Assembly (NCBI GenBank): GCA_956465555.1
Contig: OY101120.1
Coordinates: 930,001 to 994,000, forward strand
DNA: 64,000 nt
Source: Nitzschia sp. pyKryTriq1
Lineage: Eukaryota; Bacillariophyta; Bacillariophyceae; Bacillariales; Bacillariaceae
Direction: 5' to 3'
The notes beneath the pieces are model-generated. The model worked only from the letters and a program-made list of their open reading frames with translations. It was not told where the DNA came from and made no database searches. The position numbers and the translations under genes were made by a program. Position 1 is the stretch's first letter, and each line of letters opens with the position of its first letter. Of the stretch, positions 40,224 to 57,593 are shown piece by piece.

Positions 40224-42295
40224 ATGCTGCGTCCAACAGCGCTTCCCAGGATGTGGTCGTTGGTGCTTTTGTTGGGGGGTTTGCACTCGGTTGGTGCGGG
40301 TTGGATTGATCCAGATACTCCTTTGGATGCGATGACGACGCAACCTTTAACAGCCGTTCCTGGCAAAATTCCAAAACCTGCCCCGGTCCACAAAAACAAA
40401 ACCAAGGTGCCCAAGACCGCGGCACCCACTGGTAGCCCAACAGTCACTCCGACTTCGTACCCCACGTCAACTCCGGGTACATATCACTTGGTCTTCAGTG
40501 ACGAATTTAATGTACCAGGGCGCACATTCGAAGACGGGACGGATCCCCGTTGGACTGCTCTGGAAAAGAATGACTACACGAATGATGCGTTACACTATTA
40601 CGCGGCTGCGAATGCTGTGACTGATAATAAGGGTCGACTAGTCATCACTACAGAGGCTGCAGATACCGAAGTGGTTGGATTTGATGATCTAAAGGCAAAG
40701 AAGACGAGAGTTACCAAGCATTTCCGTTCGGCTATGTTGCAATCTTGGAATAAGTTTTGCTTCACTGGAGGCATCATCGAGGCCGAAGTGGAACTTCCCG
40801 GAAAAAGTGAAGTTGGAGGATTGTGGCCCGCCTTTTGGCTTCTAGGAAACCTAGCACGTCACACCTACGTGGGCTCATCAGAACATATCTGGCCGTGGAG
40901 TTCGAAGGTTTGCACGGAACGCAGCTTCTCTTCACAGCATATCACTGCTTGCGACCAAGTCGCCCACTATGGATTACATGCCGGTGTGGGTCGAGGTTCT
41001 CCAGAAATTGATATTTTCGAGGTTCAACCGGGAAGTTTGAAGGCCAACCATGGCGTTTTCCTTCGTTCTCCCGTCGGTCAACCATTTATGAGCGCTTCCT
41101 TCCAAGTTGCGCCTGGAAGGAGTAACATGCGGCCAGGCCCTGGATACTGGCCTGGTCCTGGTCAGTGGTACGATGGTTTGGTGGGAGGAGAGAACAGTTC
41201 TATGAATATTGGATTCTATGGCAGTTATAATCACTTTATTGGCGACCCCCACCCGGAAAAGTCTGACTACTGGAGTGATGCCATCAGTTTCAATCGTCAG
41301 CTTGACGGGAGCTTCTTCAACAGCTCGCATACCTATCGCCTAGAGTGGGATGTGCCCACCGACAAAAAAGACGGTTATCTTCATTGGTTTCTGGATGGTA
41401 AACTGGTTCTTGCCATTAATGGGACTGGTATACGGAATGCTGGTACTGGTAAGTACTACTCTCTTGCTCCTTTATCGGTCCTGTCGAGAGTTACTTGTCT
41501 CACAGAGACTTTTTGCTTTCTCGTCAGGCTCGGAAATCTCCACAGAGCCAAGTTACATTCTTTTAAATACGGCAATCTCTTCACAATGGGGGTTTCCACT
41601 TGAATGTCCGGACAATTGCTTGTGTAAAAAATACGACTGCCACTCCAACGACTACGCTATGCGATGTGGTTTTTCGGATGGATTCTGTCAGATGATGTCT
41701 GAGCAGAACCCCAAGTATAAAATTCACCACGTCCGCGTATACCAGAATCCGGACATGGAGGAGCAAAAAATTGGTTGTTCGACGCCTGAGCGACCGACGC
41801 GAAGGTACATTGAAGCCCACGAAAAGTTGTACAAGACCGAACATGATGTGAGTAGAGTATTCATTCCCTATTTTCAGCGTCAAAATCGACCCAGCGATCT
41901 CACAGTTTTCATTTCCATCGTTTTCTTCACCAAAGGATCGTCCCCTGAAACCTGTCGCCACAGGTCGAGGCGTCTGCAACCCAAAATCTCAAGGGGAAGG
42001 GCGTGAAACCTGTGGAGGAGAAAAGCGTGGAACGTGCACCCAAGGAAATGTCTGCGAATGCCACAAGGGATGGACTGGTCCACATTGTCTTGCCTCCGCG
42101 GGTCATGATGATATAATTTGGGATGAACCCGAGACAATTAAGGATATTGGATTTGTGCCGCCAAGTGTCGTTCCGAATGGTTTACTGATCGGTCTCGTCA
42201 CACTTGTTGTTGTATTCTTGATAAGTGTGCAATGGCGACAGCGCATGGAAGGCTGGAGTCCGATCCCCGACGTTCAGAGAAAGTATAGGAGTTGA
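40224..42295 (+). CDS. KRE6/SKN1-family beta-glucan transglycosylase (GH16-like)
   Basis: Three exons, 40224-41448, 41528-41847 and 41936-42295, with introns of 79 and 88 bases (phases 1 and 0), give 634 residues. A signal peptide (MWSLVLLLGGLHSVGAG region) is followed by a Pro/Thr-rich linker. The SKN1 domain then starts with YHLVFSDEFNVPGRTF and the GH16-type catalytic motif is SPEIDIFEVQ near residue 261, both acids present. Exon 3 encodes a Cys-rich EGF-like segment (CTQGNVCECHKGWTGPHC) and a C-terminal membrane helix (GLLIGLVTLVVVFLISVQW) with a short cytosolic tail. In fungi these proteins help make beta-1,6-glucan; in diatoms TGS homologues add beta-1,6 branches to chrysolaminarin at the vacuole. 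That role is inferred. Confidence 0.9.
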
Positions 42296-50383: not shown

Positions 50384-51742
50384 ATGGCGGCACCAACCAA
50401 ACGAGGACATCAAAGGGTGTTCATCTTTTCTGTTGCCATTTCAGTGTGCCTCTTTTTTGTACAAGTCTCGTTAAACTACGATCTTCTGAGTGTTGCTGGA
50501 ACAGCTTCCAGCGAAAGGTCGATTCTTCCTTCGCAATTGATCCTCAACAGCTCGCATTCCCGTCAAGTTTTCGCAAAAACGACAATCCAGTCCAACACCT
50601 CCCATGCTTCATCAAAGAACCCCCTTCGAAAACTTCTTCTGAGCGTCCCATTCTATGTGTACGAAGAATTGGCTTGGAAAGGTGCTCAATGGGATCGCAA
50701 ACCAATCAAAGATTTCATCACGGAAAATGATAATACCAAACACGCCGACGACTATTGGTTCATGAGAAATGCCTTGCGACATCCGATGCGAACGCAGGAC
50801 GCATCCGAGGCCCAGCTCTTTGTGATTCCATCATTGCACAACTTTTTTGATTCGAGGGCCTTTCACAAAACTAAAAGGTTGTGCTTGAAAGGCGTTTGCG
50901 GTCAAAAACTCATGGTGTTGGCGGCAGAGACAGTAGTGACGTCGTCTCCCTATTTCCAGAATCGGTCCGAGGCCCACTTGGCGGTGGTTTCACACTTTGT
51001 ACATCATAAACGGTGGTGGAGCAACCAAATGCCGGCATTGTACAAGACCATGTTGACGCGGTCCAGCAATATTCAATTTGAGGACTTCAAGACAAATGAT
51101 CCGGATCGATGGAGCGTGCCGAAACTTCATGTGGGCCGGGCTTGTCCGTTGCAGACCCGCAAGAGATACGACGTGGCCTTGATCGCTACCTTGAAAAATG
51201 ACACACGATTTCGCGACCGGGAAAGGATTTGTTCTTGGTTACAAAAATATACTGTCAACAATACACAAGGCGGTGGTTTGTTTCGAATGCAACAATGTGG
51301 GCAGGGTACACAATGTCCTTCCTTGGCAGAGGCCAAACTCGGCTTTCATGTCCGAGGAGATACTCCCAGCTCAAGTCGTCTTTGCGACACTGTTTTAAGT
51401 GGGACAGTTCCCATCTTTACGCTTCATGAGCAGTATCAGGTGTTGCCGGATTGGTTTGATTGGGAACGAATTTCATACTTTTTGGACATGAAAACGTTGG
51501 AGGAAGCAACCTTTGTCCGTAAGTTGTCGGCAATTATCAATGACACCGAGGCCTATCAGCGCAAACTGGATCTCGTATTGGCGAATCGCCACTTGTTCGA
51601 TTGGACCGGGTTGTATCCTTTTGATACCTACATGTATATGTTGCAAACCACCTTGTACCCCGAAACAGCGCACGATCCGACTAGCTTTTATGCTCCGAAC
51701 CAAGGAAGCAGCATCCTACGACTACCACAGCCGCCCAGTTGA
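50384..51742 (+). CDS. Exostosin-like glycosyltransferase (GT47)
   Basis: A 452-residue intronless type II membrane protein: a short basic cytosolic tail (MAAPTKRGHQR), a membrane anchor (VFIFSVAISVCLFFVQVSL), a Ser-rich stem, then the catalytic region from about residue 80. The exostosin signature lies near the C-terminus: AKLGFHVRGDTPSSSRLCDT followed by VLSGTVPIFTL, corresponding to the nucleotide-sugar site of GT47. Earlier blocks ADDYWFMRNALRHPMRTQDA and EAQLFVIPSLHNFF also fit. GT47 enzymes add glucuronic acid, galactose, xylose or arabinose to wall polysaccharides or glycosaminoglycans; the donor is not predictable. Golgi location is inferred. It is convergent with the first sulfotransferase (142 bases apart). 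Confidence 0.88.
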   Translation: MAAPTKRGHQRVFIFSVAISVCLFFVQVSLNYDLLSVAGTASSERSILPSQLILNSSHSRQVFAKTTIQSNTSHASSKNPLRKLLLSVPFYVYEELAWKGAQWDRKPIKDFITENDNTKHADDYWFMRNALRHPMRTQDASEAQLFVIPSLHNFFDSRAFHKTKRLCLKGVCGQKLMVLAAETVVTSSPYFQNRSEAHLAVVSHFVHHKRWWSNQMPALYKTMLTRSSNIQFEDFKTNDPDRWSVPKLHVGRACPLQTRKRYDVALIATLKNDTRFRDRERICSWLQKYTVNNTQGGGLFRMQQCGQGTQCPSLAEAKLGFHVRGDTPSSSRLCDTVLSGTVPIFTLHEQYQVLPDWFDWERISYFLDMKTLEEATFVRKLSAIINDTEAYQRKLDLVLANRHLFDWTGLYPFDTYMYMLQTTLYPETAHDPTSFYAPNQGSSILRLPQPPS

Positions 51743-51883
51743 GGGAGCGACACTCTATAAAAATACTAGAAAGTCGACTAGTGCAGTAGAATTTCTGAAG
51801 AGTAGAACAGTAGTAGAAAAGGCGACGACGCAAAGAATAAAACATTGTTGCTTCTCCAGTACTCCTAAAGCGGTCATATACTA

Positions 51884-53047
51884 TTAAACCTTTGCTATCA
51901 GCAATTCCTCCACAGTTAATCGCGGCAGTTGAAATAGATCATAATCCTGGCCGTAGCGTTCGTAAATTAACTGCAAACGTTCGTTACTTCCATAGCTATC
52001 GCCCAACACGTTTCCTTTGTTCGAGCCAGTATTATGTCCTTTCTTCTGTGTCGTGGATGCTCTAAATGCGAGGCCCTTCGGGTACCGTTCTCGCAAGAGC
52101 GCCTGATCCTGATCCACCGCCGTTCCTCCTGTCTTGACTACATTTTGAATCAAATACTCGGCTGTGCTGGAGTCGACTCCTATAGTGGAAAGGAGTCGCT
52201 GGATATGGTCGGGAGCCGTAGGTGTCGTGAGTTGGTGGACAAAATCGTAGTAGTCCAGGGTATTTCCGATTCCTCCACAAAACTGCTGGGCGGGTGCAAA
52301 ATGCGGATTACTAAACACTTGGCCGGGGTGTAGATCCAATTGCGCCAGCGCGTGGTCGAACGAGGTAGACATCCAAGGGAACCATCCGGATCTGCCGAAG
52401 GTCTGGACGCAGTGATCGATTCCTCGCCCACGTTCTTTGACAATGCATTTCGATCGGAAGGCACTCAGGAAACGAGTTGCGGGGTCACGGAAAAAGGCAC
52501 TTTTGGTCCACGTAGGATCCATCAACATTCCTTCTAGGTCCGACTTCGTCAGATTGTGGTGCGCTGGCGTATTTCGAAACCAGTTGCCGTCGGCTTGAAA
52601 TTCAGCCTCTGATTTCATGTCGTCTTCGGAAAGATTCGGATGAAGCAGCCGTAGCATTCGGAACAAATGATTGAACATGCTGCATCCCACCTTTTCCGTG
52701 TAACAAAATAGAAGCTTGTATTCTGGAACGACAATGAATCGATCCAAGTAGAATTCTGCAAGTACAGGTCGCTTGGTTGGCCGAGAATCTGCCGACAAAG
52801 AATCGCGAGCCAAAGATGAATACAGTGGGCGTTCTGTAGAATTGATCGATGACTTTACAGCCGTGAGCCCAAGGGAAGGATTTCGAACAACTAAATCTTC
52901 CTGGTATCCGAACGAAATACTGCCCTCCAATTTCACACTGTAGAGACAGACCAAAAATAGCAAACCTCCAAAAATCTTGACTCGAGTGCAGGAATTCATC
53001 AGCTCGCTCCGCCTGGGGGAATTCTTCGATACGGTGACGGCCGTCAT
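51884..53047 (-). CDS. Golgi carbohydrate sulfotransferase (Sulfotransfer_2), copy 1
   Basis: A 387-residue intronless type II membrane protein. The anchor (VKIFGGLLFLVCLYSV) follows a basic tail with RRSELMNSC. The sulfotransferase domain has a 5'-phosphosulfate loop CYTEKVGCSMFNHLFRML near residue 120 and a 3'-phosphate motif FFRDPATRFLSAFRSKC near residue 195, as in HNK-1 and chondroitin 4-O sulfotransferases. It would move sulfate from PAPS to a glycan in the Golgi lumen. A very similar copy lies at 54694-55854, and similarity continues about 60 bases upstream of both start codons, showing a tandem duplication. A small DNA transposon now separates the copies. The acceptor glycan is unknown. 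Confidence 0.88.
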   Translation of the reverse strand: MTAVTVSKNSPRRSELMNSCTRVKIFGGLLFLVCLYSVKLEGSISFGYQEDLVVRNPSLGLTAVKSSINSTERPLYSSLARDSLSADSRPTKRPVLAEFYLDRFIVVPEYKLLFCYTEKVGCSMFNHLFRMLRLLHPNLSEDDMKSEAEFQADGNWFRNTPAHHNLTKSDLEGMLMDPTWTKSAFFRDPATRFLSAFRSKCIVKERGRGIDHCVQTFGRSGWFPWMSTSFDHALAQLDLHPGQVFSNPHFAPAQQFCGGIGNTLDYYDFVHQLTTPTAPDHIQRLLSTIGVDSSTAEYLIQNVVKTGGTAVDQDQALLRERYPKGLAFRASTTQKKGHNTGSNKGNVLGDSYGSNERLQLIYERYGQDYDLFQLPRLTVEELLIAKV

Positions 53048-53162
53048 TGGATGTGACTCAAGCTAGTCTTAAAGGAACGAACAAGAGGATCGGGAAGAAA
53101 CCACTAACAACTCTGTTGCATCATCGGAGATGTTTTGTACAATGTACGAGTACAGTGTACAA

Positions 53163-53184
53163 TACTGGGACTTGGGGGAAATGA
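53163..53184 (+). repeat. Terminal inverted repeat, left
   Basis: The left end of the Harbinger-like element, a perfect 22-base match to the complement of 54022-54043. The base just outside is A (CAA before TACTG). Confidence 0.85.
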
Positions 53185-53412
53185 CGTATTTTGACCTGTT
53201 GACGAGTTTTGGCAAAGTAAACCACGCCAGTGCGGAACTGTACAGTAGCTACAAGTAGGACGAGCGAAGGACGGGCGCTACTAGTAGTAGTAGTAGAGGT
53301 CGTCCGATAGAATGAGTACTGAGCTAGCTACTACAAGTATGGCACATTGAAGGGGATGGTTCGTTATCTTAGTAGTACTGCTACTCTACTAGAGGGCTTA
53401 TTATGTTCTATC

Positions 53413-54025
53413 TTACACTTCCCAAACAAAGTATCCATTTTCAATTTGTAGCTGTGTGATAGCAGCAATGGCTTGGAAGACAAAATAATGCCAGTCCTCA
53501 CCATGTCGGAAAGTATGCTGCAGGATTCCCCATTCCTTCAATCTTCTATTTATGGTTTCGTGGCGAGCCATCAGCTTGTCATACTGTCTTCGCTCATCCG
53601 GTCGGAGCTCCCGTCTTGTGACACTCGGGCCAGTAGGGTCCTTGTACACTGCATCTGCTAAGTAATACTCGCCAGGAGGCAAGCGGTTGTGCAGCCAATT
53701 TCTTGCAACACGTAAGTCTTGCCATTCTCCCGCCCAAAATGGCCCATTCGTGTGCACTATGTACCCAGTGGCAATTGATAATGCCACCTCATATCGTAGA
53801 GCAGGCCCAGCAAACTTGTGTGACTTCCTACCGGTCTCGAAGGGCTGCCACTCTACAGTACGGTAGTCGGTTCCATCTACCGTGATTTTGGTTGGACGGC
53901 CCGTGTCTCCGATCAATCGCTTCCTAAAATCAATCTACACGCAGTTTGAGATTTTATTTAACGAAGTGTATTCAGTCAGGCAAAGTACGTACCAAATCAT
54001 CCGCCATATATGCCATAGCACTCAT
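53413..54025 (-). CDS. DDE_Tnp_4-type transposase fragment
   Basis: A proposed two-exon reading, 54025-53993 and 53934-53413, with a 58-base intron (GTACGT..GTAG), yields 184 residues. The DDE triad is present: ITVDGTDYRTVEWQPF (first Asp), GEYYLADAVYKD (second Asp) and LMARHETINRRLKEWGIL (Glu). Between them FAGPALRYEVALSIATGYIV and NGPFWAGEWQDLRVAR are typical of DDE endonucleases of Harbinger transposons. The N-terminal helix-turn-helix region expected upstream is missing, so the product is probably unable to act alone. Without the intron the frame is open only to a TTG at 53916. The C-terminus (QIENGYFVWEV) looks complete. Confidence 0.7.
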
Positions 54026-54043
54026 TTCCCCCAAGTCCCAGTA
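54022..54043 (-). repeat. Terminal inverted repeat, right
   Basis: The right end of the element. On the minus strand it reads like the left end. The putative transposase ATG (54025-54023) lies within its inner edge. Confidence 0.85.
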
Positions 54044-54693
54044 CTCTTGTCCGCAATGATATTATGTTTTTGTGCACTTTACTTTCCGTGCCGGTACGTG
54101 TACCGGTACCGGTAGTCTTCTACACGTAGAATACGGTACAGTACAAGTAACGCTAACGGTACGGAAGAGCGCGAAGAGTGTCATTTTTTCGAAGCATTTC
54201 CAATAATATTACGGGGTTATTTGAGGGCAGTCGTACCAGTCGTTGTGGTCATTTGGGTCCATTCGCCCGACAGACGACCAGAGCGAGCGAGCGAGATCGG
54301 ACACAACAAAAAGTCGCCGTCGTTCTCTCTCTCTCTCTCTCTCTAGTCTAGAGAGAGGCTACATGAGGATGATGATGTAGTCTTTCTCTCGTAGAGTAGT
54401 AGAAGTATAGCTAATTGAGAAAAGAGAGATCATTAATGGTACTGCACGAATACTGGTACTGTAGGAGTAGGATGGGTTTTCAAATGAAAAGCGAAAGCTC
54501 TGCTATTGAAAGCGGGGTCCTGTATGTAGTAGGGAGGGACGACTACTGTGTAGTACAGGTACTGTACCGGTATGGCCGTAGAGCATTGCTACAGACTATG
54601 AATAGACCTATAATAAGCTGCGCTCACATTGCGTACCCGCAATGACAAGTTCCGCTGAACAAGAATATTCTCTGCCTACGTAGACTTTCAGAT
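54044..54693. other. Gene-free stretch with GTAC and CT repeats
   Basis: The space between the transposon and the second sulfotransferase stop. It contains TACCGGTACCGGTAG near 54100-54115, a CT microsatellite (54324-54344) and further GTAC motifs near 54440-54575. No gene is seen. Confidence 0.5.
54324..54357. repeat. CT microsatellite with inverted AG arm
   Basis: About ten CT units are followed by AGTCTAGAGAGAGG, so the CT run can fold back on the AG arm as a hairpin. It lies in a gene-free region. Confidence 0.7.
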
Positions 54694-55854
54694 TTAGACT
54701 CGGGCTATTTTCAGTTCCTCCAACGTTAATCGCGGAAGTTGGAAAAGGTCATAGTCTTCTCCGTATCGGTCATGAACTATTTGCAAGCGTTCGGTCTTTT
54801 CATAGCTCTCGTCTAGCACATTGCCTTGGTTTGAGCCCGTATTGTGTCCCTGTCTCCTGGATCCTTTCAATTGAAGGCCCTGCGGAAATCGTTTCTTCAG
54901 GAGCTGCTGGTCCTGATCCACCCTGGTTCCTCCCGTCTTGACTACATTCTGAGTCAAATACTCCGATGTGCTTGAGTCGACTCCTATAATGGAAAAAAGT
55001 CGCTTCATATGATCGTGAGTCGTGGACGTCCTGAGTTGGTGGACAAAATCGTAATAGTCCAGGGTGTTCCCGACTCCTCCACAAAACTGATGGGCGGGTG
55101 CAAAATGCGGATTACTAAAGACTTGATTGCGACGCTGATCCAATTGAGTAATGGCATGCTCAAACGACACCGACCCCACACCGGGTCTTCCAAAGGCTTG
55201 CTTGCAGGCATACTCATGCCCATCTTCTTTGTTCTTGCATTTGGATCGGAAGGCACTCAGGAAACGAGTTGCGGGGTCACGGAAAAAGGTACCTTTGGTC
55301 CATGCAGGATCCATCAACATTTCTTCTAGGTCCGACTTCGTCAGATTGTGGTGTGCTGGCGTATTTCGAAACCAGGTGCCGTCGGCTTGAGATGTAGCCT
55401 CTGATTTCATGTCGTCTTCGGAAAGATTCGGGTGAAGCAGCCGTAGCATTCGGAACAAGTGATTGAACATGCTGCATCCCACCTTTTCCATGTAACAAAA
55501 TAGGAGTTTGTATTCTGGAACGACAATGAATCGATCCAAGTACAACTCTGTAAGTACAGGTCGCTTGGTTGGCCGAGAATCTGCCGACAAGGAATCGCGA
55601 GCCAAAGATGAATACAGTTTGCCATCCTCAGAAGAATCATCCGAAGCATTCAAAGAAAACAGAGGCGTGTGTTCCAGCGGGGAAGGGCTTCTAACAACGG
55701 CGTCTTCCTGGTATTGGAACGAAATACTGTCCTCCAATTTCACACTGTAGAGACAGACCAAAACTAACAAACTTCCGAAAACTTTGACTCGAGTGCAGGA
55801 TTTCAACAGTTCGCTCCGCCTGGGGGAATTCTTCGATGCGGTGACGGCCGCCAT
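54694..55854 (-). CDS. Golgi carbohydrate sulfotransferase (Sulfotransfer_2), copy 2
   Basis: A 386-residue intronless type II membrane protein and close paralogue of the gene at 51884-53047. The anchor is VKVFGSLLVLVCLYSV; the PAPS loop reads CYMEKVGCSMFNHLFRML and the second motif FFRDPATRFLSAFRSKC, identical in the key residues. The copies differ mainly in the stem (about residues 45-80, where this one has HTPLFSLNASDDSSEDGK) and in the loop after the second motif, which is three residues longer in copy 1. Both frames are intact and conserved at catalytic motifs, suggesting that both are kept functional. Differences in stem and loop could alter acceptor choice; that is inference. Confidence 0.88.
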   Translation of the reverse strand: MAAVTASKNSPRRSELLKSCTRVKVFGSLLVLVCLYSVKLEDSISFQYQEDAVVRSPSPLEHTPLFSLNASDDSSEDGKLYSSLARDSLSADSRPTKRPVLTELYLDRFIVVPEYKLLFCYMEKVGCSMFNHLFRMLRLLHPNLSEDDMKSEATSQADGTWFRNTPAHHNLTKSDLEEMLMDPAWTKGTFFRDPATRFLSAFRSKCKNKEDGHEYACKQAFGRPGVGSVSFEHAITQLDQRRNQVFSNPHFAPAHQFCGGVGNTLDYYDFVHQLRTSTTHDHMKRLFSIIGVDSSTSEYLTQNVVKTGGTRVDQDQQLLKKRFPQGLQLKGSRRQGHNTGSNQGNVLDESYEKTERLQIVHDRYGEDYDLFQLPRLTLEELKIARV

Positions 55855-56351
55855 TGGATGGGACTCAAGCTAGTCTATTATACGTGGTAGCAACAGGAAC
55901 GCACAAGAGGGTCGGGAAGAAGTCACTCTGTAATCTGTGATCTATAAGTACTCCTCTTCTGCTTTGCTGGGAACTGGAAATAAAATGCCCGCACATCTCT
56001 CGCCATGTCATTTGTCATTGTCATCGCATTTTGCAGCACCCGATTTCGTCCCGCGCACTTGGCGGGCGGGCGGGCCGGGCTCGCTCCTTTGCATGACGTC
56101 ATGCATGGGGATAGTTTCGGTGTCTTTAGAATCGATCGAGTCGTCAGTTTGCCATAATAATATTTCGGCGTGAGTCCCACGTTCCACGTTCATCAACGCA
56201 ATTTCAACAACAACAAATCGAAAACGCTTCGATGCAAGCACACAAGACTCAAGTGCGAATACAGCACAAACACGATGACACTCCTTTGAAACCAGATTCA
56301 GATCCTTGCCGCATTTCCCTTTTTGCGTTTCAATGATTCACTTTCAGTAGC
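55855..56351. other. Divergent upstream region
   Basis: About 500 bases between sulfotransferase copy 2 (minus) and the GT25-like gene (plus). The first 60 bases or so resemble the region upstream of copy 1 (ACTCAAGCTAGTCT in both). A GC-rich GGCGGGCGGGCCGGG lies near 56065. No gene is recognised. Confidence 0.55.
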
Positions 56352-57593
56352 ATGTCACAGTGGAGGAAAAGACTCTGGTTCGGCTTTTTCTGGATCATTA
56401 TTTGGCTGGTGGCACTCACCGTCAAGTTGGCGCACCTGCAGTTTGAGCATCATGAAACGACGAAGACTTGGATAGGCGACGCTCCTTTGCTCGCCGCTGA
56501 TGATTATTCCGAGCCAACGGGTCGGCTGGACGGTGCTCGAAACGTGGTAACGGTCAAACCAACAAGCCCTTCTGCAGTCAATGCTCACCGCAAGGTCCCG
56601 ACAATCAGACATGTTCTTCCGCAGAAAAGGAATGTGCCTGTCGGCAACTCAACCATTCGGATCGAGAATTCCACGTTCTTTCAGTGGAAATTAAATCTCA
56701 CGACGAGACTGGAACGAGCAAACAAAATCCGGGCATCTCGGGAGCGGGGCAAGACAATTCTTCAGTCATTGGACACTTCACGGATCACTGAATCCAGCCA
56801 TCAAAAGATCGTCAACGAGACGATAGTGGGGAAGCGGAATGTCGTTCTAATTCGAGCCAGCAACAATGGGCGTATCCTGCCTGCTCAAGTCATCAAAGAA
56901 GAGCTACGCAAAAAATTGCATGCTTCACTTCAATTTTCAGTGATTACGCGTTTGGAACGGATTTACTATATCAACATGAGTCATCGTCCTCGCAAACGAG
57001 CCATTATGGAATCGTGGCTTTCCAAACAGCCCATTCCCTACCAACGCGTGCCGGGCCAAAAGGGGCAGAAAGATACATGCATTCCACGGAAACAAGGTCG
57101 TCGATGTATTGGAATATCCGGCTTGGCTCGTACGAATTTGAAACTCCTGGATGCCCTGAATGATACGACGGGAATCACTTTGGTAGTCGAAGACGATTTT
57201 GTCATTCGAGACATGAGCAAGTTGCTTGCCTCGGTCCATTTGGTTCCTCCGGATTGGGATATTTTGCGTTGGGATTGTTGGGATCAGCCTCTACCGCACT
57301 TTGATCGATATCCGTTTTCATTTAAAAATGCGCCCATCACTAGCCAAGTCTGTGAAGACATCCAACGACCATGCCACTTTTGCGGAGGCACTCATGTCGC
57401 AATGTGGAAGGGTGGCGAGTCGCTGGAAAAGCTGCGGCGGATTTGGGGTACTCCCCCGCATGATGGAATCGATTGTCAGCTCAATCATCCATCTATAAAT
57501 AGCTATTGCATTCAAGTTGGAGTGGGAGAATTTCATGTTCCCATCACCGAATGGTCCGATATTCCAAAGACTAAGGACGACCTGCTGCTGTAG
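56352..57593 (+). CDS. GT25-like glycosyltransferase
   Basis: A 413-residue intronless type II membrane protein. The anchor (WFGFFWIIIWLVALTVKLA) follows a basic tail MSQWRKRL; a Ser/Thr- and Lys-rich stem with several Asn-x-Thr/Ser sites reaches about residue 195. The catalytic region shows the GT25 pattern: LERIYYINMSHRPRKRAIME, a PYQRVPGQKG strand, ISGLARTNLKLLDAL, the acidic metal site LVVEDDFVIRDM, and WDILRWDCWD. This family includes procollagen galactosyltransferases and bacterial LPS galactosyltransferases, so galactose transfer is possible. Golgi or ER lumen location is inferred. It is the last of four type II glycan genes between 50.4 and 57.6 kb. Confidence 0.8.
   Translation: MSQWRKRLWFGFFWIIIWLVALTVKLAHLQFEHHETTKTWIGDAPLLAADDYSEPTGRLDGARNVVTVKPTSPSAVNAHRKVPTIRHVLPQKRNVPVGNSTIRIENSTFFQWKLNLTTRLERANKIRASRERGKTILQSLDTSRITESSHQKIVNETIVGKRNVVLIRASNNGRILPAQVIKEELRKKLHASLQFSVITRLERIYYINMSHRPRKRAIMESWLSKQPIPYQRVPGQKGQKDTCIPRKQGRRCIGISGLARTNLKLLDALNDTTGITLVVEDDFVIRDMSKLLASVHLVPPDWDILRWDCWDQPLPHFDRYPFSFKNAPITSQVCEDIQRPCHFCGGTHVAMWKGGESLEKLRRIWGTPPHDGIDCQLNHPSINSYCIQVGVGEFHVPITEWSDIPKTKDDLLL

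What the first reader, a model, noticed from the sequence alone, without database searches (positions are those of the whole stretch)
50384..57593. Cluster of four type II membrane glycan enzymes: a possible sulfated-polysaccharide locus
Seen: four consecutive protein-coding host genes (GT47 exostosin-like, two Sulfotransfer_2, GT25-like) each start with a short basic tail, one membrane anchor and a stem, the Golgi type II layout. Known: exostosins and Sulfotransfer_2 enzymes build and sulfate glycosaminoglycan-like chains. Inference: the block may make a sulfated surface or adhesive glycan. Clustering of such genes is not expected by chance in a eukaryote, and I know of no description of this arrangement.
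Basis: partly seen in the sequence, partly recalled or inferred. Interest (0 to 1): 0.7.

Follow-up and report, generated by a model that had tools for sequence, protein, structure and literature searches.

The report
Neighbouring Golgi sugar-chain enzyme genes
Four neighbouring genes appear to encode membrane-anchored enzymes that build and sulfate sugar chains, but two are duplicates of one another, and although they sit closer together than chance would give, nothing yet shows that they work as one pathway.

Summary
Four ORFs lie exactly where stated: a GT47 exostosin-like gene, two Sulfotransfer_2 genes and a GT25-like gene, each with an N-terminal hydrophobic segment. Three corrections. 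(1) The sulfotransferases are a tandem duplication (76% identical), so the cluster is three units, not four. (2) They are not strictly consecutive: an 881-bp inverted-repeat element with a transposase remnant lies between them. (3) The fourth protein misses Pfam's GT25 model and is GT25-like only by profile-profile comparison. In the 40.65-Mb genome, these three families meet within 6 kb in 4 of 20,000 random placements (uncorrected for the choice of families); any three of nine glycan-enzyme classes meet within 6.5 kb in about 0.9%. A second trio, GT31-GT47-GT25-like, lies on contig C15 with the same GT47-to-GT25-like order, but its members are not recent copies of the window's. Outside the window the excess vanishes when C15 is dropped, so a genome-wide habit is not shown. 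Synteny in other species and co-expression could not be tested. That diatom exostosins and sulfotransferases make sulfated exudates is already proposed in print; my searches did not find the arrangement described. Most likely: secretory-pathway enzymes for a sulfated glycan, brought together partly by duplication; a single pathway is unproven.

The parts
50384..51742 (+). GT47 (exostosin-like) glycosyltransferase, 452 aa, N-terminal hydrophobic segment about residues 12-30
   Evidence: Pfam PF03016 52.5 bits, residues 117-378; hydropathy; aligned with seven genome paralogues
51884..53047 (-). Sulfotransfer_2 gene a, 387 aa
   Evidence: Pfam PF03567 70.5 bits; K..C and RDP..R.LSA residues kept in the 5-member alignment
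53163..54043 (.). 881-bp element with perfect 22-bp terminal inverted repeats between the two sulfotransferases; transposase remnant on the - strand (open frame 53413-53934)
   Evidence: I1; DDE_Tnp_4 E=0.0052, 16.9 bits, under its cut-off of 24.8; close copies on C9 and C13
54694..55854 (-). Sulfotransfer_2 gene b, 386 aa, tandem duplicate of gene a (76% aa identity)
   Evidence: Pfam 75 bits
55855..56351 (.). 497-bp intergenic region between divergently transcribed sulfotransferase b and GT25-like gene; holds one TGACGTCA at 56094
   Evidence: promoter role is inference
56352..57593 (+). GT25-like glycosyltransferase, 413 aa, hydrophobic segment about residues 8-26, EDD motif at 280-282
   Evidence: no Pfam GT25 match; profile-profile with the genome's five Pfam GT25 genes 92% probability, E=5.6e-7; PHROG glucosyltransferase family E=2.3e-5; E280 D281 D282 invariant in 6 of 6 paralogues

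Best explanation
Four real genes for type II, probably Golgi, glycan enzymes: a GT47 and a GT25-like enzyme add sugars to a chain or glycoprotein, and two duplicate PAPS-dependent sulfotransferases add sulfate. Shown: the ORFs, the families (the fourth only as GT25-like), the hydrophobic N termini, the tandem duplication, and a spacing tighter than random placement. Inferred: Golgi location, catalysis, and a shared product such as a sulfated extracellular or wall glycan. The genes came together through one tandem duplication plus a GT47 / GT25-like neighbourhood that has a counterpart on contig C15. They are on mixed strands and are not an operon, so any co-regulation would go through the divergent region between sulfotransferase b and the GT25-like gene, or through chromatin.
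For: Families and motifs. N-terminal hydrophobic segments; the AlphaFold model of the GT25-like protein is confident only over about its first 30 residues, a helix. Both sulfotransferases kept under constraint on average: dN/dS 0.15/0.45 by NG86, 0.16/0.38 by YN00. Close spacing: 4 of 20,000 draws. Second trio GT31(-) GT47(+) GT25-like(+) at C15:527-534k, and a further neighbourhood GT25-like, GT31-like, sulfotransferase-domain frames at C15:104-118k. Rotation test with all places: 7 cross-family pairs within 5 kb against a mean of 1.33, reached by 0 of 4000 rotations; within 7 kb 10 against 1.84, 0 of 4000; within 3 kb 4 against 0.80, P 0.0105.
Against: With the window left out: within 3 kb 2 pairs against 0.76, P 0.17; with Pfam GT31 genes only, within 5 kb 3 against 1.05, reached by 364 of 4000 rotations; with C15 also dropped, 2 against 0.90 within 5 kb (926 of 4000) and 2 against 1.26 within 7 kb (1418 of 4000). 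The C15 GT47 is 31% identical to the window's, and its 93% twin at C15:579k has no GT25-like match near it, so the C15 pair may be recent and accidental. Of 8 other places that match sulfotransferase b outside the window (two matches of one C3 frame joined), only one, C8:1874k, lies within 30 kb of a GT47 or GT25-like match, at 10.9 kb. No expression or synteny data. No control with non-glycan families was run.
Confidence: 0.5

Rival explanations
1. Coincidence plus duplication: unrelated glycan genes of large families happened to land together, and one sulfotransferase duplicated in tandem. No joint pathway.
For: Families are large here: 24 GT47 places (two of them under the Pfam cut-off) and 27 Sulfotransfer_2 places (merged; lower bounds). 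Four same-family pairs lie within 5 kb. Of 27 scanned out of 53 neighbour ORFs around 31 other glycan loci, 2 were glycosyltransferases of further families (GT32, just over its cut-off, and GT41), so glycan neighbours are not rare. No excess outside the window once C15 is dropped.
Against: 4 of 20,000 draws for these three families within 6 kb, about 0.9% for any three of nine classes; a second trio sharing GT47 and GT25-like exists.
Confidence: 0.37
2. History without function: the window and C15 keep the order of an ancient GT47 to GT25-like neighbourhood that was copied by segmental duplication; the sulfotransferases entered later.
For: Same order and orientation, GT47(+) then GT25-like(+), in both places.
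Against: In the tree of 9 GT47 genes the C15 gene groups with C15:579k and C8:1863k, the window gene with C6:2481k; in the tree of 6 GT25-like genes the window gene pairs with C5:2896k and C15:533k with C15:104k. A shared ancestral pair would need several losses.
Confidence: 0.2
3. The enzymes glycosylate and sulfate proteins (wall or adhesive glycoproteins) rather than build a polysaccharide.
For: GT25 enzymes of animals act on collagen hydroxylysine (recalled). Sulphated polysaccharides/proteoglycans in secreted material and wall-associated glycoproteins of raphid diatoms are cited in a passage of PMC7335047.
Against: Acceptors cannot be read from these sequences; GT47 enzymes do both jobs in plants (recalled).
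Confidence: 0.4

Closest known systems
Diatom exostosin-like and sulfotransferase genes proposed for sulfated exudates (Seminavis robusta PMC7335047, exostosins only; Nitzschia inconspicua PMC8329260, both)
   Same: Same enzyme classes and same proposed product (passages)
   Different: The passages seen describe gene repertoires, not a cluster of these genes; their supplements were not seen
Brown algal FK-GFPP / sulfotransferase / hydrolase microsynteny (PMC11468063, section 7 part 1)
   Same: Stramenopile gene neighbourhood with a sulfotransferase, tied to a sulfated glycan, conserved across orders
   Different: Sugar-nucleotide salvage genes rather than GT47 and GT25-like genes; conservation was tested there, here it could not be
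Animal heparan sulfate machinery (EXT GT47-GT64 plus sulfotransferases)
   Same: GT47 domain and sulfotransferases, type II Golgi proteins (recalled; EXT domains from the start of the abstract of PMC9178029)
   Different: A single GT47 domain matched here; Sulfotransfer_2 subtype unknown; the animal genes are not known to me to be clustered (recalled)

Membership tests
GT47 exostosin (PF03016) | Score over the curated cut-off | tested here: met
   52.5 bits against 33.4
Sulfotransfer_2 (PF03567) | Score over the curated cut-off | tested here: met
   70.5 and 75 bits against 22
Sulfotransfer_2 (PF03567) | PAPS-binding motifs (5' K..C and 3' RDP..R.LSA; the roles of these motifs are recalled) | tested here: met
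   K124, C127, R192 D193 P194 R197 L199 S200 A201 of P0003 invariant in 5 of 5 aligned; 5 of the 27 genes were aligned
GT25 (PF01755) | Score over the curated cut-off | tested here: not met
   No match up to E=1; the genome search lists 5 other places, not this one. Called GT25-like only
GT25 (PF01755) | Remote homology to GT25 genes | tested here: met
   hhalign 92% probability, E=5.6e-7 over 109 columns, small alignments of 6 and 5 sequences
GT25 (PF01755) | GT-A fold | tested here: inconclusive
   single-sequence model, mean pLDDT 35.9
Type II Golgi enzyme | Short basic tail, one N-terminal anchor, catalytic domain after a stem | tested here: met
   hydropathy and domain positions; a cleaved signal peptide is not excluded, and the values for the two sulfotransferases are borderline
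Type II Golgi enzyme | Golgi localisation | not testable with these tools
   needs tagging
Eukaryotic biosynthetic gene cluster | Non-homologous enzymes of one pathway side by side, beyond chance | tested here: inconclusive
   Beyond chance at this place; common pathway not shown; excess elsewhere depends on C15
Eukaryotic biosynthetic gene cluster | Conserved neighbourhood or co-expression | not testable with these tools
   no relatives of this genome held (stated) and no expression data

The most novel reading that the evidence does not exclude
GT47, GT31, GT25-like and Sulfotransfer_2 genes form recurrent mini-clusters in this genome (window; C15:527-534k; C15:104-118k; C6:2475-2482k), each encoding enzymes of one sulfated matrix glycan: clustered assembly genes for a sulfated glycan in a diatom.
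Probability: 0.2. Interest if true: 0.65.

Novelty: new member of a known kind. Interest (0 to 1): 0.36.

Why it matters
The enzymes that make sulfated diatom glycans, which matter for gliding, adhesion and carbon export, are to my knowledge largely unassigned (recalled); a passage of PMC11468063 says that the precise structures of the diatom glycans have not been investigated in detail. If the neighbourhoods reflect pathways, they name candidate enzyme sets that can be knocked out together.

Tried and rejected
Viral contigs were scanned for close relatives of the GT25-like and sulfotransferase b proteins: none confirmed; the GT47 protein was not scanned there. NCBIfam gave only chance matches. 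PDB sequence searches gave only chance matches for the single window proteins and for two neighbour ORFs; the GT25-like profile gave the R655 'putative glycosyltransferase' at E=0.85, and the GT47 profile gave exostosin chains at E about 0.018, behind Fc-receptor chance matches. AlphaFold on the GT25-like protein alone failed (mean pLDDT 35.9), so no fold search was made. PF13632 gave only 3 places. A claim that glycan genes cluster genome-wide was considered and dropped because it fails without C15. My first reading of unnamed ORFs in L048 and L023 as glycosyltransferases got no support from Pfam; only the 746-aa ORF of L048 was later tied to GT31, by similarity (E=9e-60) to a gene at a PF01762 place. 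That place, and the other GT31-like places, entered the tests after I had looked beside a GT25-like gene, which favours the clustering reading; tests without them are given.

Rows left out: the GT47 tree holds 9 genes, those with an ORF matching the window protein; of 14 loci tried there, 5 gave no match, and the C15:41k relative was not in the set. The GT47 alignment leaves out the shortened C16:198k ORF. The C12 sulfotransferase fragment is not among the 27 Sulfotransfer_2 places. 26 of 53 neighbour ORFs were not scanned.

Full report
What is there. The four ORFs lie at the stated coordinates with starts fixed by nearby upstream stops. They are a GT47 gene (52.5 bits), two Sulfotransfer_2 genes (70.5 and 75 bits) and a fourth with only a chance-level Pfam match. 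The gene order is GT47(+), sulfotransferase a(-), sulfotransferase b(-), GT25-like(+), with gaps of 141, 1646 and 497 bases. Each begins with basic residues and one hydrophobic segment (19-residue hydropathy 2.48, 1.63, 1.66, 2.08). That fits a type II anchor; a cleaved signal peptide is not excluded, and the two sulfotransferase values are borderline.

The fourth gene. It has no Pfam GT25 hit, and the genome search with PF01755 lists five other places. A profile of it and five genome paralogues aligns with a profile of those five Pfam GT25 genes at 92% probability, E=5.6e-7, over the 'IYYINM ... EDD' stretch, and a PHROG glucosyltransferase family matches at 2.3e-5. 'GT25-like' is therefore fair; membership of the Pfam family is not met.

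The sulfotransferases are one duplication. They are 76% identical in protein and 82% in 381 aligned codons, with dN/dS 0.15/0.45 (NG86) or 0.16/0.38 (YN00), so both have been kept under constraint on average. Divergence is uneven: dS is 0.31 and 0.20 over codons 1-100 and 101-220 and 0.84 over the rest, which fits partial gene conversion (inference). A 94% copy of window 54136-55116, the 3' part of gene b and its downstream DNA, lies at C12:1622976-1623957; the rest of the gene was not found there. Between the two genes lies an 881-bp element with perfect 22-bp inverted repeats. A relative on C9 matches 859 of its bases at 99.9% and has a further reading frame beyond the match; one on C13 matches 737 bases at 99%. 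The insertion is therefore probably recent (inference). Its nearer end is 115 bases from the start codon of gene a.

Chance. From genome-wide searches I counted 24 GT47, 27 Sulfotransfer_2 and 6 GT25-like places (merged; lower bounds, two GT47 places under the cut-off). With tandems collapsed and uniform placement, all three families fall within 6 kb somewhere in 4 of 20,000 draws. This is uncorrected for the choice of families. Over nine glycan-enzyme classes (108 places, 103 units), any three classes within 6.5 kb occur in 0.8-0.9% of draws. Two such trios exist: the window, and GT31-GT47-GT25-like at C15:527.5-534.4k.

Is it a habit of the genome? I rotated each family against the others, which keeps each family's own clustering. 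With the GT31-like places added, cross-family pairs within 3, 5 and 7 kb number 4, 7 and 10 against means of 0.80, 1.33 and 1.84 (P 0.0105, 0 of 4000, 0 of 4000). Leaving out the window: 2 against 0.76 within 3 kb (P 0.17), 5 against 1.23 within 5 kb (38 of 4000) and 7 against 1.71 within 7 kb (9 of 4000). Leaving out the window and the GT31-like places: 3 against 1.05 within 5 kb (364 of 4000) and 5 against 1.53 within 7 kb (81 of 4000). Dropping C15 as well as the window: 2 against 0.90 (926 of 4000) and 2 against 1.26 (1418 of 4000). The pattern therefore rests on the window and on C15. Pfam scans of 27 of 53 neighbour ORFs around 31 other glycan loci found two further glycosyltransferases, GT32 and GT41, so glycan neighbours are not rare here.

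History. The C15 GT47 is 31% identical to the window's and 93% to a copy 48 kb away that has no GT25-like match near it; the window GT47 is closest to C6:2481k (43%), which has GT31-like genes beside it. The GT25-like tree pairs the window gene with C5:2896k. The two GT47/GT25-like pairs share order and orientation but are not recent copies of each other.

Literature. Passages of PMC7335047 link diatom exostosins, and a passage of PMC8329260 links exostosins and sulfotransferases, to sulfated extracellular polymers. PMC11468063 section 7 part 1 describes a conserved brown algal neighbourhood with a sulfotransferase, a GDP-fucose salvage enzyme and a hydrolase. Passages of PMC4659905 list algal carbohydrate sulfotransferases, two diatoms included. 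The searches listed no paper whose title or abstract start describes a GT47-sulfotransferase-GT25-like cluster in diatoms; two searches showed 15 of 30 and 15 of 39 papers, and most subscription papers are not in that library.

Verdict. Real genes, correctly typed in the main, closer together than random placement gives, partly explained by duplication. A dedicated sulfated-polysaccharide locus is possible but unproven, and the tests that would decide it (synteny, expression, knockout) need data not held here.

Noticed in passing
53163-54043: 881-bp inverted-repeat element with a transposase remnant (DDE_Tnp_4 E=0.0052, under the cut-off); a relative on C9, 99.9% identical over 859 bases and with a further frame beyond the match, suggests recent activity.
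   Followed up: partly
54136-55116 (copy at C12:1622976-1623957, L032): A 94% copy of the 3' part of sulfotransferase b and its downstream DNA sits on another contig; the rest of the gene was not found there.
   Followed up: partly
G000 C7:63234-65126, C7:294705-296501, C3:2969809-2971911: Three single frames hold both an exostosin GT47 and a Galactosyl_T (GT31) match, in two different orders: possible two-domain polymerases, comparable in layout to animal EXT (GT47-GT64).
   Followed up: no
G000 C15:111786-118254 (L048 5728-7083 and L053): Near-identical repeated frames with Sulfotransfer_2 matches, one followed in frame by an unassigned domain.
   Followed up: partly
L047 3870-8970 (C8:1873.9-1879.0k): Sulfotransfer_2 gene, then an unassigned 386-aa ORF with an N-terminal hydrophobic stretch and 'GNSHTRQ', then a GT2 gene: another glycan neighbourhood.
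   Followed up: partly
40224-41603: SKN1/KRE6 beta-glucan synthesis gene, about 9 kb upstream of the block.
   Followed up: no
56094-56101: TGACGTCA palindrome in the divergent region between sulfotransferase b and the GT25-like gene; CO2/cAMP-responsive elements with this core are recalled for diatoms.
   Followed up: no
G000 contig C15: 1.3-Mb contig with 3 of 6 GT25-like genes, 4 of 14 GT32 places and several GT31 and GT47 genes: unusually rich in glycan enzymes.
   Followed up: partly
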